This document shows positions 2,692 to 20,812 of a stretch of 54,526 nucleotides of DNA, piece by piece. Below the pieces are notes generated by a model. It saw nothing but the letters and a program-made list of their open reading frames with translations. It was not told where the DNA came from and ran no database searches. Both the position numbers and the translations under genes were made by a program. Position 1 is the first letter of the stretch, and each line of letters starts with the position of its first letter. The stretch spans positions 1-54,526 of the forward strand of contig JAPLPS010000074.1 in the NCBI GenBank assembly GCA_026400075.1, written 5' to 3'. Source of the stretch: Polaromonas sp. (lineage in GTDB: Bacteria > Pseudomonadota > Gammaproteobacteria > Burkholderiales > Burkholderiaceae_C).

Positions 2692-3756
2692 ATGGCACTC
2701 GTTTCGATGCGCGAGCTGCTGGACCACGCCGCCGCCAATGGCTACGGCATTCCAGCTTTCAACGTCAACAACCTGGAACAGGTTCAGGCCGTGATGGCCG
2801 CCGCCGCCGAGGTGGGCGCCCCCGTCATCCTGCAGGCCAGCGCAGGCGCCCGCAAATACGCCGGTGAAGCCTTCATCAAGCACCTGATTCTGGCCGCCGT
2901 TGAAGCCTACCCGCACATTCCGCTGGTGATGCACCAGGATCACGGCCAAAGCCCGGCCATCTGCCAGGGCGCGATTGACCTGGGCTTTAGCTCGGTGATG
3001 ATGGACGGCTCGCTGCACGAAGACGGCAAGACCCCGGCCTCGTTCGAGTACAACACCGAAGTGACGCGCAAGGTCGTCGAAATGGCCCACGCCACCGGCG
3101 TGTCGGTCGAAGGCGAACTCGGCTGCCTGGGCAACCTGGAAACCGGCGAAGCCGGTGAAGAAGACGGCATCGGCGCCGTCGGCAAGCTCGACCACAGCCA
3201 GATGCTGACAGACCCCGAAGAAGCCGCCCAGTTCGTCAAGGCCACCGGCCTGGACGCGCTGGCGATTGCCATCGGCACCAGCCACGGCGCTTACAAATTC
3301 AGCCGCAAGCCCACCGGCGACATCCTGGCGATCTCCCGCGTCAAGGAAATCCACGCCCGCATCCCGAACACCCATTTGGTGATGCACGGCTCGTCGTCGG
3401 TGCCGCAAGACCTGCTGGCCATCATAAACCAGTACGGCGGCCAAATGAAAGAAACCTACGGCGTGCCCGTGGAAGAAATCCAGGAAGCCATCAAGTTCGG
3501 CGTGCGCAAGATCAACATCGACACCGACATCCGCCTGGCGATGACCGGCGCGGTGCGCAAGTTCCTCGCTGAGAACCCAGACAAGTTCGACGCCCGTGAA
3601 TGGCTCAAGCCTGCCCGTGAAGCCGCCAAGGCGATTTGCAAGCAGCGTTACATCGAGTTCGGCTGCGAAGGTCAGGCCGCCACGATCAAGGGCCGCAGCC
3701 TGTCCGTCGTCGCCGCCCAGTACGCCAATGGCGAACTGGCGCAAGTCGTCCAGTAA
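2692..3756 (+). CDS. fba: Class II fructose-bisphosphate aldolase
   Basis: [65 protein letters not shown]. Confidence 0.96.
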
Positions 3757-3796
3757 TCTGCCCGTGCCATCCGCTGCGCCGGATTGGCGATAATTC

Positions 3797-3835
3797 AAAG
3801 CCCGTGGACTCTGCCCGAGTCGCACGGGCTTTTTT
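3797..3835 (+). terminator. Rho-independent terminator after fba
   Basis: AAAGCCCGTG...CACGGGCTTTTTT stem-loop plus T tract. Confidence 0.85.
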
Positions 3836-3860
3836 ACTTTTCCCTACCTGCATCACCTGC

Positions 3861-4778
3861 ATGACCACCATGACCACAGCACTTCACACCTCGGCCCTGA
3901 CTTCCCTGCCACTGCTCGCGCGCGGCAAGGTGCGCGACAACTACGCCGTCGGCCAGGACCGGCTGCTGATGGTGGCCAGCGACCGCCTGAGCGCGTTTGA
4001 CGTGATTCTGGGCGAGCCGATTCCCGGCAAGGGCGCGCTGCTGACGCAGATGGCGCTGTTCTGGTTCGGCAAGCTCGGCCACATCTGCCCGAATCACCTG
4101 ACCGGCGACGCGCCCGAAAGCGTGGTCAGCGCCGCAGAAATCCCGCAAGTGACGGCCCGCGCTATGCTGGTCAAGCGCCTGAAACCGATTCCGGTCGAAG
4201 CCGTGGTGCGTGGCTATCTGGCGGGCAGCGGCTGGGCCGAATACCAGCAAAGCCAGTCGGTCTGCGGCGTGGCTCTGCCTGCCGGACTGCAAAACGCCAG
4301 CAAGCTGCCCGAGCCGATTTTCACGCCCGCCGCCAAGGCCGAAGTCGGCGAGCATGACGAAAACATCGACTACGCCCAGGTCGAAAAAGTCGTCGGCCCC
4401 GAACTGGCCGCGCAGATCAAAAAGCTCAGCATCGAGATTTACCAGACCGCCGCCGCGTTTGCGCTGACCAAGGGCATCATCATTGCCGACACCAAATTCG
4501 AGTTCGGCCTGGACGACAACGGCACGCTGACGCTGATGGACGAGGTGCTGACGCCCGATTCGTCGCGCTACTGGCCGGTTGAAGGCTACGAAGCGGCGTT
4601 TGCCGCTGGCCAGAACCCGCCCAGCTACGACAAGCAGTTCGTGCGCGACTGGCTCGAAGCCGTGCGCATCAACGGCAAGCCGTGGGACAAAACCGCACCG
4701 TCGCCGCACCTGCCGCCCGACGTGATCGCCAAAACCGCCGCCAAGTACCAAGAAGCGATGACGCGGCTGACGGCCTGA
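3861..4778 (+). CDS. purC: Phosphoribosylaminoimidazole-succinocarboxamide synthase
   Basis: Start [60 protein letters not shown] synthase family. Confidence 0.95.
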
Positions 4779-4811
4779 GGCGGGGCGGGGGGGGGCACCC
4801 TCCCAGTCCAG

Positions 4812-5114
4812 CTAGACCACCTCCAGCTCCCGCGTCGCCTCATCCAGCACCGACTGCGGAACACCGTGCTTTTTCAGCGCCTCAATCAGCCGCGCCTGTG
4901 CGCTGAACATGAACTGCGCCTCATCGCGGCGCAGGCCCTCGCTCAGGTATGCCTTGAGCAGCGTCTGGTATCCGGCAAAGCCGCGTTTCGGGGCAATGCT
5001 CTTCATAGAGTCCACCACATCCACCGGGATGCGCAACGTGATGGAGGTCATGGGCCGGTCTTTGGTCAGCCGGGTTTTGATGCGTTCAGAAATGCTCATG
5101 GTCTTGCCTTTCAT
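4812..5114 (-). CDS. BrnA-like/CopG-type antitoxin
   Basis: M(KGKTM)SISERIKTRLTKDRPMTSITLRIPVDVVDSMKSIAPKRGFAGYQTLLKAYLSEGLRRDE; ribbon-helix-helix. Overlaps the end of the upstream toxin ORF. Confidence 0.8.
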   Translation of the reverse strand: MKGKTMSISERIKTRLTKDRPMTSITLRIPVDVVDSMKSIAPKRGFAGYQTLLKAYLSEGLRRDEAQFMFSAQARLIEALKKHGVPQSVLDEATRELEVV

Positions 5115-5385
5115 GGGAGGTTGCCCGGCGGGCGGAAATGATGCGGATGAGCGCATTGTCAAGCTCGATATGCACCACAAACAGCAGGCGCGAGGAGGCG
5201 TCAAAGCCAATGATGGCGTCTCGCGCCTCCTGGTTGCGCCCGGCGTCCACCAAGCGAAACAAGGGGTCAAAGAACACCGTGGCTGCCTGCTCGAATGTCA
5301 CGCCGTCATGCTTACCCGGATTGCTTGCCGACTTGCGCTCATTCCACACGAAATCGCATCCATTGAGCTGATAGTGAATATCCAT
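5086..5385 (-). CDS. BrnT-like toxin
   Basis: 99 aa, FVWNERKSASNPGKHDGVTFEQAATVFFDPL...RLLFVVHIELDNALIRIISARRATSHERQDHE; classic BrnT layout. Confidence 0.88.
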   Translation of the reverse strand: MDIHYQLNGCDFVWNERKSASNPGKHDGVTFEQAATVFFDPLFRLVDAGRNQEARDAIIGFDASSRLLFVVHIELDNALIRIISARRATSHERQDHEHF

Positions 5386-5618
5386 GCCCTGAAGTCTAAA
5401 GAGTGTATTGTCTTTGTCAATACAATTTTTGATGAAAATTGATTTAGCTTCGTTACGCTTTCTCGGCAGGTCATGCCTCGCGCACGGGCGGCCTGTGGGA
5501 ATTTAGCTGTTGTTATTGAGGGATAGGCCCAACAAGGCACTGATTTTCAGGAAGATCTGCCGAAGTTTGCTTTATAAAGGCTTGGTTTTCCTCAACCTGG
5601 CCTCAGGCTTCAGCCCTC

Positions 5619-6197
5619 ATGAACGATCTGTCCAATCTGAACGAACCCGCCGCCATTGCCGGTATCTGGGCCGACTCGCGGGCCTGCGGCTTCACGATGG
5701 CGTCCGAGCCGCTGACCTGCTCGCTGCTGCGCACGCTGGCCGCGACCAAGCCTGCGGCGCGGTTTCTGGAGCTGGGTTCGGGTTCGGGCCTGTCCACCGC
5801 CTGGCTGCTCGACGGCATGGACGCGGCGTCCAGCTTGAGCACGGTGGACAACGACGAGGCGCTGCTGGCCATCCTGAAAAAGCACCTCGGCGCCGACCCG
5901 CGCCTGACGGTGGCTTGCGCCGATGGCGATGATTTCCTGCGCTCGCTGCAAGGGCAGCGCTTTGACTTCATTTTTGCCGACACCTGGGCGGGCAAATACC
6001 GCCTGCTCGACGAGGCGCTGGCGCTGCTGAACCCCGGCGGCCTGTACGTCATCGACGACATGCTGCCCCAGCCGAACTGGCCCGAAGGCCACGCCGAAAA
6101 AGTCGCCCATCTGGTTGCCACGCTGGAGCAGCGGGAGGATTTTCGGCTTACCAAGCTGTCCTGGGCGAGTGGTGTGATGTTGGTGAGCAGGCGCTGA
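5619..6197 (+). CDS. Class I SAM-dependent (O-)methyltransferase
   Basis: FLELGSGSGLSTAWLLDGM, VDNDEALLAILK, DFIFADTWAGKY, GGLYVIDDML. Confidence 0.85.
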   Translation: MNDLSNLNEPAAIAGIWADSRACGFTMASEPLTCSLLRTLAATKPAARFLELGSGSGLSTAWLLDGMDAASSLSTVDNDEALLAILKKHLGADPRLTVACADGDDFLRSLQGQRFDFIFADTWAGKYRLLDEALALLNPGGLYVIDDMLPQPNWPEGHAEKVAHLVATLEQREDFRLTKLSWASGVMLVSRR

Positions 6198-6260
6198 GTT
6201 GGGGAATTTTTGAGGGCCAGTTAGGCGGCGACTTCGGCGGCTGATGTTATTCGTAAATTC

Positions 6261-7067
6261 CTATTTTAAAAACTTTTGTTCGATTTTTGGAATGGTTTTG
6301 GCGATTGCTTCCGACAATTTTCGTCTTTTGAATATGTGTAATGCAGCTTCAAATATTTCAAAGGAATGTAGTAAGTCGGTTTCGTCAACTCCATCTGAAT
6401 GGGTGGCTTCATTGCCAACAAGCTTTAAAGCTGTCAACCAAGCTGCTTCTTCAGGATATTTTACAGCCATTGCCTGAATACTTTTGTGAAGCGTATTTTC
6501 ACAAAATTCTAGTTCGGTACACATTTTCTCCATAGCCCTCCTTAATTTCCCACCCGATGCAGGTAGATCGCTGTGAAAATAGTTAAAAGCATACAGGAGT
6601 TCTTCTGCGATTGATCTTGGAATAAAATTTTCTATCGGGAAAATTGGAAGTGGCGGGCTAAAGTATTCAGCCTTTATCTGAATAAATGATTTTTCATTAG
6701 AAAGACTGTTGGGTATTAGTGCAGATCCAGTTGCGGAAACAGTATGAAAGCAATTTTCACATTGAAAAAATGTGATGAATTTTCCAGGATTATATTTTAT
6801 ACCATCATATGCCATTACTCCATAGCACAAAATATCAAAGAAGCTATCCCCTTTAAGTGCAGTTTTAAGCCCAGAAGTTGCTACGGACTTATGACGATTG
6901 ACACTAAAATTTCCAAAATTTGATGGAACTCCTCGACACTCAAAGGTGTCGGGTTGCAACTTTAACTTGAGTGAGTTGCAGTATGGGCAAGGTAATACCG
7001 GATAATTATCTGGCGAGATAAAAGTTTTTACACTTTCCCATAGATATTTTGAAAACAAAATAGACAT
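6261..7067 (-). CDS. DUF4145-like domain protein
   Basis: CPYCNS zinc ribbon-like N-terminus; C-terminal IPRSIAEELLYAFNYFHSDLPASGGKLRRAMEKMC...LVGNEATHSDG resembles DUF4145. Markedly AT-rich against its flanks. Confidence 0.65.
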   Translation of the reverse strand: MSILFSKYLWESVKTFISPDNYPVLPCPYCNSLKLKLQPDTFECRGVPSNFGNFSVNRHKSVATSGLKTALKGDSFFDILCYGVMAYDGIKYNPGKFITFFQCENCFHTVSATGSALIPNSLSNEKSFIQIKAEYFSPPLPIFPIENFIPRSIAEELLYAFNYFHSDLPASGGKLRRAMEKMCTELEFCENTLHKSIQAMAVKYPEEAAWLTALKLVGNEATHSDGVDETDLLHSFEIFEAALHIFKRRKLSEAIAKTIPKIEQKFLK

Positions 7068-7259: not shown

Positions 7260-7511
7260 CCAAGCCCACATCAAAAAAAGGTGTGGCCGGGTTTGGAAGC
7301 CCGAGTCACTTCTGCGACGTAAGCCGCAGTTTCACCGCAGAACCTGCGGCTTCATCATTTCTGCCTCCAGTTTTTGGCGGCTCGGATGGGGGAGCCTCGG
7401 CTCCGCCGGTTTTCGCAAGAAGTGCCCGGTCTTCCAACCTGTTCGAGCTGCCGCCCTCATTTGGAAGTGAGTGCGTCAGTTTTTGCAAACTGCACTTCTT
7501 GGAGGCCATTC
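7260..7511 (+). promoter_or_regulatory. Structured leader region upstream of the HTH gene
   Basis: Several inverted repeats: GGGTTTGGAAGCCC, GCCGCAG..CTGCGGC, GGCGG..CCGCC. No convincing protein in it. Confidence 0.4.
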
Positions 7512-7604
7512 ATGGCTGAATTCGTCACGGGCGCGTGCGCCCTCATTCCCGTCTTCACGGGCAAATTCTCCGATTCCTGCGCCCTGAACGGCGGTGCCGC
7601 ATGA
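7512..7604 (+). CDS. 30-aa leader ORF translationally coupled (ATGA) to the downstream HTH gene
   Basis: GGAGG 8 nt upstream of the ATG; MAEFVTGACALIPVFTGKFSDSCALNGGAA; stop TGA overlaps the ATG of the next ORF (GCATGAGCC). Confidence 0.45.
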   Translation: MAEFVTGACALIPVFTGKFSDSCALNGGAA

Positions 7605-8722
7605 GCCGCCCCGACCTCGACATGGCCGCCAAAATCTGGCGCTGCGCCCTGCCGCCGGGCGTCAACAAGCTGGTGCTGCAATGTTTCGTCCACCACCTCA
7701 ACGCCAGGGAGGGCGCGGCCTATTTTGGCCTGAGCTGGCCCAGCATCAGCCGCGTGGCGCGCATGTGCGGCATCAGCGAGCGCACGGTGCAGGGCCACAT
7801 CCGCGCCCTGGAGCGCGCTGGCATCCTGCGCGCCCGGCTGCGCACGGGCCGCACCACGCGCTACAGCATCCACACCGACACCCTGGCGCCGCTGGTGTTC
7901 AGCACCGACACCGTGGTGCTGGATGCGCTGGCGCCGACCCCCGCAGTTTTTGCCGAAAAACCTGCAGCCAACGACACGCAAGCCGCAGAAAACGACACAA
8001 AACCTGTCGAAATCTGCACCCTAACAGGAGATAGATCGTCTAAAAACGCAGCAGTAACAGCCGCCCCGGCGCTGCCGGACGCGCTGCTGCTGGCCGATGG
8101 CGTTCCGCCGCAAGTCCTGGCCGACTTCGCGGCGATACGGGCCAAAAAGAAGCTGGGCGCGCTCAACGCCACCGCGCTGGACGCGCTGCGCAGCCAAGCC
8201 GCCATCGCGGGCCTGACGCTGGCGCAAGTCTTGGCACTCTGCTGCACCCGCAACTGGGGCCGCTTCGAGGCCGCCTGGCTGACGGACACCCGCCGCAGCC
8301 CGGCTGGCAGCGCCAACCCGGCCAGCGCAGCCAGCGCCAGCACGGCCAACGTCACCCCACCCGCGCCGCCCGCAGGCCCGCCGCCCGCACCGCCCGCGCC
8401 GCCCAAACGGGCAGCGCCCGAAGTCGTCGCCGCTGGCTGTCAGCGCCTGCAGGAAATCCGCCAAACCATGCGCGGCGCCCCGGCCATGCCCGCCATGCCG
8501 CCCGGCGCCCGCGAAATCCGCATCACCCCCGATGCCCCCGGCTGGGCCGTCGCCATCGTCAACAAACAGCGCACCGGCCAGCACGTCAACCGCAGCGCGC
8601 TGGACAACGCCTGCGCTGTCCTCAAGCTCGACCCGGCGGGCCTGCGCCGCGCCGTTCCGCATGACGCCTGCACTGCGCGCAAGCCGAATCCGGCGGGCTT
8701 GGCGGCGGGGCGGATGCATTGA
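7601..8722 (+). CDS. Helix-turn-helix (HTH_36-like) protein, plasmid/phage-accessory type
   Basis: AYFGLSWPSISRVARMCGISERTVQGHIRALERAGILRARLRTGRTTRYSI winged-HTH; Pro/Ala-rich linker. Confidence 0.65.
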   Translation: MSRPDLDMAAKIWRCALPPGVNKLVLQCFVHHLNAREGAAYFGLSWPSISRVARMCGISERTVQGHIRALERAGILRARLRTGRTTRYSIHTDTLAPLVFSTDTVVLDALAPTPAVFAEKPAANDTQAAENDTKPVEICTLTGDRSSKNAAVTAAPALPDALLLADGVPPQVLADFAAIRAKKKLGALNATALDALRSQAAIAGLTLAQVLALCCTRNWGRFEAAWLTDTRRSPAGSANPASAASASTANVTPPAPPAGPPPAPPAPPKRAAPEVVAAGCQRLQEIRQTMRGAPAMPAMPPGAREIRITPDAPGWAVAIVNKQRTGQHVNRSALDNACAVLKLDPAGLRRAVPHDACTARKPNPAGLAAGRMH

Positions 8723-18448: not shown

Positions 18449-18615
18449 AGCGCCCGCTGACCCGGCTTGATACCGCCTTTTTCCTTTTTTGAGCAGCACT
18501 TGCCGCTTCAGTTTCGGCCGCCTGCCGCATGACCTGAATCAAGCGCTTGGCGCTGGCCTGGGCCGATAGTGCATCGGCGCAGGTCAGTGAATCAAACGTC
18601 AAAAAGGAAAATTCC

Positions 18616-18906
18616 GGTCAACCACCCCAGCCTAAAGGCCGGAGCTTGAAGTCCAAAAACAACGAGCCAGGTTGAAACAGGGAAAGCGGTAACCAGCCCG
18701 CTACGTTAGCAATGGGTCGTTAAGACGCACCAGCAAATGCTTCCTCAGTTTGCTGCTCTGCAAGGCTTTAATCATGCAGACCAAGGGTAAAGGGTTGAAG
18801 GTTTTAGTCGCTACTCGCAAGGGTAGGAGCCGGTTGCTGACAGTCCCGAGGGGAGATTTGCCGAAAGGCTTACGTCACAAGGCCCGTAAGGGCAGAAGGT
18901 TTTGAA
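18616..18906 (+). ncRNA. HEARO/omega-RNA-like region upstream of iscB (5' boundary approximate)
   Basis: Non-coding block directly abutting the iscB ATG. Starts ggtcaaccaccccagcctaaaggccggagcttgaag and ends ...aaggcccgtaagggcagaaggttttgaa, the characteristic arrangement of HEARO RNAs with IscB ORFs. Confidence 0.8.
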
Positions 18907-20271
18907 ATGGCAGCATTTGTTTTGGATAGAGGAGGCAGGCCACTGATGCCCTGCACCGAAAAGCGGGCCAGATTGCTGCTGGAACGCGGTCGCGCCAGAG
19001 TACACAAGATGTTGCCGTTCACGATTCGCGTCGTTGACCGCTTTGCTGAATCTGGCGAGTTTCAGGCTCTGCGCTTCAAGCTTGACCCCGGCAGCAAGAC
19101 CACCGGCATGGCTTTGGTGCGGGAAACCGCAGAGTACGGCGTGGCCGTCATCAACCTGTTTGAGCTGGTACACCGTGGCAAACAGATCAGCGAAGCACTC
19201 ACGGCACGGCGTGGGCATCGCAGGCAGCGGCGCAGTCACTTGCGCTACCGTGCGCCCCGGTTCTTGAACAGGGGCAACAAAAAGTCAGGCTGGCTGGCGC
19301 CAAGCCTGCAACACCGGGTTGATACCAGCATGGCTTGGGTGAACCGCATCCAGCGGTATGCCCCGGTGTCAAGCATCAGTACCGAACTGGTGCGCTTTGA
19401 CATGCAGGCACTGGAGAATCCGGAAATTGAAGGCGTGCAGTACCAGCAGGGCACCTTGACGGGCTACGAAGTCCGCGAGTATCTGCTGGAAAAGTGGGGC
19501 CGCACTTGCGCCTACTGCGGCGCCAAGAACGTGCCGCTGCAAATTGAGCACATCCAGCCCAGGTCTAAGGGCGGTTCAAACCGCATCAGCAATCTGGCGC
19601 TGGCTTGTCAATGCTGCAATCAGCAAAAAGGGGCCACAAGTATTGAAGACTTTTTGAGGAAACAGCCCGAGCGTTTGAAACGTATTCAGGCCCAAGCCAA
19701 GCGTCCGCTCAAGGATGCTGCTGCCGTCAATGCAACTCGCTGGGCGCTGGTCAACGCCCTCAAGGCGACGGGTCTTGCTGTTGAAACCGCCTCCGGCGGC
19801 AGAACAAAATTCAATCGGAGCCAGTTCAACATTCCTAAAACCCATGCGCTCGATGCTGCCTGTGTCGGCTATGTGAACGCAATGACCGGCTGGCGCAAGC
19901 CGACGCTGTGCATCAAGGCAATGGGGCGCGGCAGTTATCAGCGCACCCGGCTGGACAAGTTTGGCTGCGTGCGCGGCTATCTGACCCGTTCAAAAAGCAT
20001 CCAGGGTTTTCAGACGGGCGATATGGTGAAAGCCGAAGTCACTCAAGGCAAGAGGGCAGGCAGCTACACCGGACGGGTTGCAATCAGGGCATCGGGCAAC
20101 TTCAATATTCAAACCTGTCATGGTTTGGTTCAAGGTGTATCCCACAGCTATTGCACCGTCGTGCAGCGCGGCGATGGATACGGTTATCAACTGGTGGCAA
20201 AAACGGACGCGACAGGTACGCCACCGCAGCAAGGAACACTTCGTGTTCCGCGCTCTACCTCCCCGGCCTGA
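18907..20271 (+). CDS. iscB: IscB RNA-guided nuclease (RuvC split by HNH)
   Basis: PLMP-type N-terminus (RGGRPLMPCTEKRARLLLERGRARVHKM), RuvC-I LDPGSKTTG, Arg-rich bridge helix RRGHRRQRRSHLRYR, HNH CAYCGAKNVPLQIEHIQPRSKGGSNRISNLALACQCCNQQKG, RuvC-III HALDAACVG. Confidence 0.93.
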   Translation: MAAFVLDRGGRPLMPCTEKRARLLLERGRARVHKMLPFTIRVVDRFAESGEFQALRFKLDPGSKTTGMALVRETAEYGVAVINLFELVHRGKQISEALTARRGHRRQRRSHLRYRAPRFLNRGNKKSGWLAPSLQHRVDTSMAWVNRIQRYAPVSSISTELVRFDMQALENPEIEGVQYQQGTLTGYEVREYLLEKWGRTCAYCGAKNVPLQIEHIQPRSKGGSNRISNLALACQCCNQQKGATSIEDFLRKQPERLKRIQAQAKRPLKDAAAVNATRWALVNALKATGLAVETASGGRTKFNRSQFNIPKTHALDAACVGYVNAMTGWRKPTLCIKAMGRGSYQRTRLDKFGCVRGYLTRSKSIQGFQTGDMVKAEVTQGKRAGSYTGRVAIRASGNFNIQTCHGLVQGVSHSYCTVVQRGDGYGYQLVAKTDATGTPPQQGTLRVPRSTSPA

Positions 20272-20296
20272 AGGCCGAGGTTTCACGCGCAAACTG

Positions 20297-20812
20297 ATGA
20301 AACTCACACGCAGAAACTGCTTGGTCGTGGCTGGCGGATTCGCTGCCGCCTTGTCGGTTGCGCCGGTATGGGCTGGCAGCCGCGTCATCAAGGTCTCACT
20401 CTGGGACAAGGGCGCGAGCGCCATGAGCATGCCGGGTCATGACGGAATGATGGGCATGGGCATGGGGCACAGGGGTGGCGCCACGCCGATGGCGCCGGTG
20501 GGGATCCGCCTGTCATCTGAGAAAGTTCCGGCGGGCAAGCTTACTTTTGAGGTGAGCAACACGTCCACCCAGATGCCGCACGAGATGGTCATTTCGTCCA
20601 TCAAGGATAGCCAGACACCTTTGCCGTATGACAAGGACGGCAACAAGGTCGATGAAGACGCTGCTGGCCATCTGGGCGAAGTGGCCGAGCTGGAACCCGG
20701 CAAAAAAGGCTCTCTTACCTTGACCCTGAAGCCGGGCCGCTACATCCTGTATTGCAATATTCCCGGCCACTACGCGCGGGGCATGTGGACGCTGCTGACC
20801 GTGACGCCCTAG
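20297..20812 (+). CDS. Cupredoxin-domain copper-binding protein
   Basis: Signal peptide; Met/His-rich SMPGHDGMMGMGMGHRGG; MPHEMVISS; YILYCNIPGHYARGMWTLLTV copper-ligand loop. Confidence 0.88.
   Translation: MKLTRRNCLVVAGGFAAALSVAPVWAGSRVIKVSLWDKGASAMSMPGHDGMMGMGMGHRGGATPMAPVGIRLSSEKVPAGKLTFEVSNTSTQMPHEMVISSIKDSQTPLPYDKDGNKVDEDAAGHLGEVAELEPGKKGSLTLTLKPGRYILYCNIPGHYARGMWTLLTVTP

What the first reader, a model, noticed from the sequence alone, without database searches (positions are those of the whole stretch)
18600..20296. Intact-looking IscB with HEARO/omega-RNA in a TnpA-less ISC element
All RuvC (LDPGSKTTG, STELVRFD, HALDAACVG) and HNH (IEHIQPRSKGGSN) motifs, the bridge helix and the PLMP-type N-terminus are present, and the upstream non-coding block abuts the ATG as HEARO RNAs do. 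No Y1 transposase is in the window, so the element is either mobilised in trans or domesticated. IscB is the established ancestor-like relative of Cas9. This copy is about 454 aa and appears catalytically complete.
Basis: partly seen in the sequence, partly recalled or inferred. Interest (0 to 1): 0.75.

Follow-up and report, generated by a model that had tools for sequence, protein, structure and literature searches.

The report
IscB element inserted at start codons
The window holds a genuine, intact-looking member of a known kind of mobile DNA that carries an RNA-guided DNA cutter (IscB, a relative of Cas9); what is less expected is that it and its relatives sit almost always exactly in front of the start codon of a host gene.

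Summary
HEARO RNA (RF02033, 90.8 bits) lies at 18617-18861, followed by a 454-aa IscB (NCBIfam equivalog, 454 bits) under purifying selection (dN/dS about 0.1-0.2 between copies). Comparing copies gives exact ends: 18617-20296. The own genome holds four iscB copies and three ~430-bp omega-RNA-only copies, so this is a mobile family, not a domesticated gene. No TnpA is linked; the genome has one separate IS605-type TnpA. The new point is the target. In this genome, five genus relatives and more distant Burkholderiales, 39 of 40 readable right ends abut ATGA and one ATGG. At 33 of 39 distinct sites this starts an ORF of at least 60 codons (26 of 31 scanned have a Pfam domain); local background is 4-19% (P about 1e-18). 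Uninterrupted homologous loci show the window copy split the ribosome-binding site from the ATG of a cupredoxin gene; two other sites behave alike. ATGA fits the published NTGA TAM of IsrB; the left flank would be the guide. In 17 elements the IscB stop codon is completed by the target ATGA, overlapping the host start. RNA-guided retention is inferred. A new member of a known kind, with an apparently unreported start-codon preference.

The parts
18597..18616 (+). Host DNA left of the element (CGTCAAAAAGGAAAATTCCG): ribosome-binding site of the interrupted gene and presumed guide of the omega RNA
   Evidence: Ends defined by comparing copies; matches the leader of the uninterrupted cupredoxin gene in G267. 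Use as guide is inferred from known IscB systems.
18617..20296 (+). Whole ISC element, GTCAA... to ...GCGCAAACTG
   Evidence: Similarity of copies stops at these bases; right-end pattern found at six places in the genome, none for the reversed control
18617..18861 (+). HEARO / omega RNA scaffold
   Evidence: Rfam RF02033, 90.8 bits, full model; 32 of 52 pairs with compensatory changes over 36 copies
18894..18899 (+). AGAAGG, presumed ribosome-binding site of iscB, 7 nt before the ATG
   Evidence: Read from the sequence; inference
18907..20271 (+). iscB, 454 aa; D60, E160, H313, D316 (RuvC) and H215 (HNH) present
   Evidence: dN/dS 0.09-0.20 between copies
20261..20280 (+). Right-end hairpin CCCCGGCC-TGAA-GGCCGAGG; the stop codon of this iscB copy lies in its loop
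   Evidence: conserved in all copies
20297..20300 (+). Target ATGA: presumed TAM and start codon of the host gene
   Evidence: 39 of 40 right ends abut ATGA; matches the NTGA TAM published for IsrB (PMC9581776)
20297..20812 (+). Interrupted host gene, cupredoxin-like protein, 171 aa, coding sequence intact
   Evidence: Pfam Cupredoxin_1; 67% identical homologue in G267 without the element

Best explanation
Positions 18617-20296 are a non-autonomous ISC element (IS200/IS605 group, no TnpA of its own) carrying an omega (HEARO) RNA and an intact-looking IscB. It sits exactly between the ribosome-binding site and the ATGA start of a cupredoxin gene. Shown: family membership, exact ends, many copies, uninterrupted homologous sites, start-codon placement, purifying selection on IscB, conserved RNA structure in full and omega-RNA-only copies. 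Inferred: the RNA is transcribed with about 16-20 nt of upstream host DNA as guide; IscB cuts the unoccupied site (guide sequence followed by ATGA), so that repair from an occupied copy restores the element; a Y1 transposase elsewhere moves it; omega-RNA-only copies borrow IscB. The start-codon preference is most simply a filter: ATGA is the required target, and insertions just before a start codon leave the protein intact and place the RNA in a transcribed leader. In many copies the IscB stop overlaps the host start (TG|ATGA or ATGA), which may let ribosomes leaving iscB restart on the host gene.
For: HEARO and IscB hits; copies with identical ends at unrelated sites; ATGA at 39 of 40 right ends, an ORF start at 33 of 39 distinct sites, 26 of 31 scanned with a Pfam domain; background 13/355 or 13/70, P about 7e-19; uninterrupted homologous loci for the window site, C348 and C321; stronger anti-Shine-Dalgarno pairing at the junction than upstream; dN/dS 0.09-0.20; covariation; stop/start overlap in 17 elements; IsrB TAM NTGA; retention role of TnpB.
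Against: No activity or expression data. Two iscB-bearing genomes, G242 and G241, show only weak or partial Y1 hits, so trans mobilisation is not shown. The window copy and six others end 25 nt before the host start, and omega-RNA-only copies have no iscB, so translational coupling cannot be the general way in which the host gene stays expressed. Several left flanks have no visible ribosome-binding site. No sigma-70-like promoter was found upstream by consensus. Copies outside Burkholderiales were hardly sampled.
Confidence: 0.8

Rival explanations
1. Domesticated IscB: the nuclease and RNA are kept at this locus for a host function, for example control of the cupredoxin gene, and no longer move.
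For: No linked TnpA; low dN/dS; position in the leader of a host gene.
Against: Several copies per genome at unrelated sites, omega-RNA-only copies, presence in only 6 of 87 genus genomes, and the homologous locus in G267 lacks the element.
Confidence: 0.07
2. The element is actively steered to start codons (by the omega RNA complex, by the transposase seeing open DNA at translated leaders, or otherwise), instead of start codons being enriched by selection.
For: Enrichment remains (33 of 39 against 13 of 70) when only ATGA sites that spare coding sequence are counted.
Against: Selection for sites with a transcribed leader could give the same pattern; the background gene calls are crude; six sites are not gene starts.
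Confidence: 0.2
3. Host-gene translation continues through an N-terminal extension started inside the element (AAGGA and GTG near the right end, in frame with the cupredoxin), not by reinitiation at the junction.
For: The frame is open from the element into the host gene: ORF 20078-20812 reads ...HFVFRALPPRPEGRGFTRKLMKLTRRN, and this frame is open for at least 20 codons upstream in the copies examined.
Against: AAGGA lies in the hairpin GGAACACTTCGTGTTCC, and the GTG is not kept in copies such as C348. No expression data.
Confidence: 0.2
4. Relic: IscB looks intact but is inactive, and the element is a dead insertion.
For: The C-terminal tail of this copy differs from the commonest form: it ends ...RVPRSTSPA 25 nt before the junction.
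Against: The same tail occurs in copies from other genomes; catalytic motifs intact; dN/dS 0.09-0.20; HEARO above the gathering score.
Confidence: 0.15

Closest known systems
ISC elements with IscB and HEARO/omega RNA (IS200/IS605 group)
   Same: Omega RNA directly upstream of IscB; IscB equivalog; hairpin at each end; single-site insertion without duplication; linked TnpA usually absent (PMC9755519, reports TnpA next to only a few HEARO nucleases)
   Different: Nothing that excludes membership. Start-codon placement and stop/start overlap were not found in the papers searchable here; the main older papers are not held
IsrB (OMEGA nickase)
   Same: About 300-nt omega RNA and a 3' NTGA target-adjacent motif, with ATGA cleaved (PMC9581776); the target here is ATGA
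   Different: IsrB lacks the HNH domain; this protein has it
TnpB in IS200/IS605 elements
   Same: RNA-guided nuclease thought to keep the element after excision (PMC11870625)
   Different: TnpB is Cas12-like and unrelated in fold arrangement; its guide is taken from the other flank (own knowledge)
IS605-type elements (tnpA with divergent tnpB) of the same genus
   Same: In G223 and G262 the DNA just downstream of tnpA resembles the ISC right end (74-76% over 70-77 bp, best E 6e-11)
   Different: They carry their own TnpA and lack HEARO/IscB; the ISC right-end pattern was not found near the TnpA of this genome

Membership tests
IscB | Sequence match to the IscB family over its length | tested here: met
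   NF040563 equivalog, 454 bits, cut-off 175, model 2-314 of 314
IscB | Split RuvC with HNH insert and catalytic residues | tested here: met
   RRXRR and HNH Pfam hits; D60, E160, H215, H313, D316 by alignment with solved IscB chains
IscB | RNA-guided DNA cleavage | not testable with these tools
   Needs biochemistry
HEARO / omega RNA | Covariance-model match above the gathering score next to the nuclease gene | tested here: met
   90.8 bits, gathering score 83, 45 nt before the ATG
HEARO / omega RNA | Transcribed with a guide from the flank | not testable with these tools
   No RNA data; the left flank differs between copies as expected of a guide
ISC transposable element | Defined ends, several copies, uninterrupted homologous sites | tested here: met
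ISC transposable element | Fixed short target next to one end | tested here: met
   ATGA after 39 of 40 right ends, ATGG after one
ISC transposable element | Mobilised by a Y1 (TnpA-type) transposase | tested here: inconclusive
   No linked TnpA. Strong Y1 hits (129-151 bits) in 4 of 6 iscB-bearing genomes and in none of 6 iscB-free controls, but G242 has only a weak hit and G241 only weak or partial ones

The most novel reading that the evidence does not exclude
A class of RNA-guided mobile elements that specialises in start codons: ATGA serves at once as transposition target, TAM, host start codon and last base(s) of the IscB stop codon, so that the guide is the host gene's own ribosome-binding site, the host promoter expresses the omega RNA, and iscB translation feeds the host gene.
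Probability: 0.35. Interest if true: 0.7.

Novelty: new member of a known kind. Interest (0 to 1): 0.45.

Why it matters
IscB is the accepted close relative of the Cas9 ancestor, and how its elements persist without a linked transposase is poorly known. A family with exact ends, full and omega-RNA-only copies, uninterrupted homologous sites and a sharply defined target is a ready natural test of guide, TAM and use of IscB in trans. The start-codon placement, if general, would explain how an omega RNA whose guide lies outside the element gets transcribed, and how an element can sit in front of genes such as atpC or pth without killing its host.

Tried and rejected
Domestication: rejected because of copy number, patchy distribution and an unoccupied homologous locus. 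A cognate TnpA with the same right end in the own genome: the right-end pattern was found only at the six known copies. A single origin of the omega-RNA-only copies: the tree needs five changes and no bootstrap tree makes them one group, so one origin is not shown. The stop/start overlap as proof of coupling: not accepted, because two of three frames close at the junction anyway and seven copies, the window's included, end 25 nt earlier. Wide sampling of the phylum for distant IscB: only one further genome in 399, so generality beyond Burkholderiales is not shown. Weinberg 2009, Kapitonov 2016 and Altae-Tran 2021 are not held; I recall that HEARO elements were said to insert next to ATGA or GTGA, but could not check this or whether start codons were noted. 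Searches of the open library found no report of start-codon placement. Structure prediction was not used.

Full report
WHAT IS THERE. The window has an ORF at 18907-20271 (454 aa) that matches the NCBIfam equivalog for IscB with 454 bits against a cut-off of 175, and Pfam RRXRR and HNH. Its closest solved relatives are IscB chains. The residues expected for RuvC (D60, E160, H313, D316) and HNH (H215) are present. Directly upstream, 18617-18861 matches Rfam HEARO with 90.8 bits (gathering score 83), over the whole model.

EXACT ENDS. The own genome (452 contigs, contamination estimate 5.18%) has four iscB places, one cut by a contig end, and six HEARO places. Similarity between copies stops abruptly at the same bases on both sides. 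The element starts at 18617 (GTCAA...) and ends at 20296 (...CACGCGCAAACTG). Bases 18600-18616 are host DNA. The right-end pattern occurs six times in the genome and the reversed control never.

OMEGA-RNA-ONLY COPIES. Three HEARO places in the genome (C321, C379, C211) have both ends and the RNA but no iscB and are about 430 bp long. With the genus relatives there are thirteen such copies in four genomes; the twelve with both ends are 426-432 bp long and one (L128) lacks a recognisable right end. HEARO and iscB occur in the same 6 of 87 same-genus genomes. An alignment of 36 RNAs, full and short copies together, gives 52 pairs of which 32 show compensatory changes. iscB copies have dN/dS of 0.09-0.20. 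These are signs of function in the recent past.

TARGET. I read the right flank of 40 elements from this genome, five genus relatives and more distant Burkholderiales. In 39 the element is followed by ATGA, in one (L037) by ATGG. One site, sspA, is occupied in two species, leaving 39 distinct sites. At 33 of these the ATG opens an ORF of at least 60 codons. Of 31 downstream proteins scanned, 26 have a Pfam domain, often from near residue 1: ATP synthase epsilon, peptidyl-tRNA hydrolase, RmlD, dodecin, ThiF/MoeB, pyrroline-5-carboxylate reductase, phosphomannomutase and others. In the window 13 of 355 ATGA sites could be a gene start, or 13 of 70 counting only those and sites outside coding stretches (gene calls are crude). 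Against 13 of 70 the chance of 33 of 39 is 7e-19. Sites are distinct, but the set is not a random sample and many elements are related.

UNINTERRUPTED HOMOLOGOUS SITES. The cupredoxin gene after the window copy has a homologue in G267 (67% identity) whose leader and start read ACATCCACAAGGAAATCACC|ATGAATCTGACACG. The window flanks joined read ACGTCAAAAAGGAAAATTCCG|ATGAAACTCACACG. The element therefore lies between the ribosome-binding site and the start codon. The C348 site is unoccupied in G241, and the C321 (sspA) site is unoccupied in many genomes, with clean junctions and no duplication. Over 39 left flanks, pairing with the anti-Shine-Dalgarno is stronger at the junction than further upstream (mean -3.9 against -2.3 kcal/mol, P 0.005). 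The effect is moderate and several flanks have no visible site.

STOP AND START. In 14 elements the IscB reading frame runs to the element's last two bases and is stopped by TG|A, the A being the first base of the target ATGA. In 3 it is stopped by the TGA of the ATGA itself. In 7, the window copy included, it ends 25 nt earlier, in the hairpin loop. Overlaps of this type allow reinitiation in other operons (own knowledge). Here it is a suggestion only, since two of three frames are closed at the junction by the sequence itself.

TRANSPOSASE. No TnpA lies in the element. The genome has one good IS605-type TnpA, on contig C372 near a tnpB, and one weak hit. Four of six iscB-bearing genomes have strong TnpA hits and six iscB-free controls have none, but G242 and G241 do not fit well. 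In G223 and G262 the DNA after tnpA resembles the ISC right end. Mobilisation in trans is plausible, not shown.

HOW IT MOST LIKELY WORKS. By analogy with IscB, IsrB and TnpB: the omega RNA is made from the host leader, its first 16-20 nt being the host sequence before 18617; IscB with this RNA recognises that sequence followed by ATGA, which exists only where the element is absent; the cut is repaired from an occupied copy, so the element is kept after excision. The NTGA TAM of IsrB (PMC9581776) and the retention role of TnpB (PMC11870625) are published; for this protein the steps are inferred. The start-codon preference is best explained by the ATGA requirement plus selection: such insertions spare the coding sequence and put the RNA in a transcribed leader. 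Active targeting is not excluded.

NOVELTY. The element fits ISC/IscB/HEARO on every defining feature that gave a clear test. The start-codon placement and the stop/start overlap were not found in the papers searchable here, but the key older papers were not available, and from memory insertion next to ATGA or GTGA was noted for HEARO. I therefore class it as a new member of a known kind, with a feature worth following.

Noticed in passing
window 7370-7458: Rfam C4 antisense RNA (RF01695), 62.1 bits against a gathering score of 45, just upstream of an ORF (7535-8722) that begins like a helix-turn-helix replication or phage-type protein; C4 is known from phage P4/P1-like immunity regions.
   Followed up: no
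G000 contig C321 and G241 contig C749 (L143): The same site, before sspA, holds an omega-RNA-only copy in two species; in G241 the HEARO has decayed (39.5 bits), in this genome it is above the gathering score.
   Followed up: partly
L131 (G223 C1:240000-249000): Two different IscB elements lie about 1.5 kb apart, and the second has two in-frame TAA in its iscB.
   Followed up: no
G000 contig C372 (L020) 3289-6983: An IS605-type TnpB (406 aa) and a TnpA (139 aa) on one contig, separated by about 2 kb that holds cyclophilin-like genes, so perhaps two separate insertions.
   Followed up: no
L041 (Acidithiobacillus marinus), about 5430-5500: A distant (50% identical) IscB locus has a hairpin-bearing right side followed by GTGA at what looks like the start of an exported protein, in keeping with GTG start codons as targets too.
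   Followed up: no
G242 contig C3 (L133-L135): All three IscB elements of this genome lie on one 338-kb contig, and the genome has no strong Y1 transposase hit, so they may have arrived with a plasmid or chromid.
   Followed up: no
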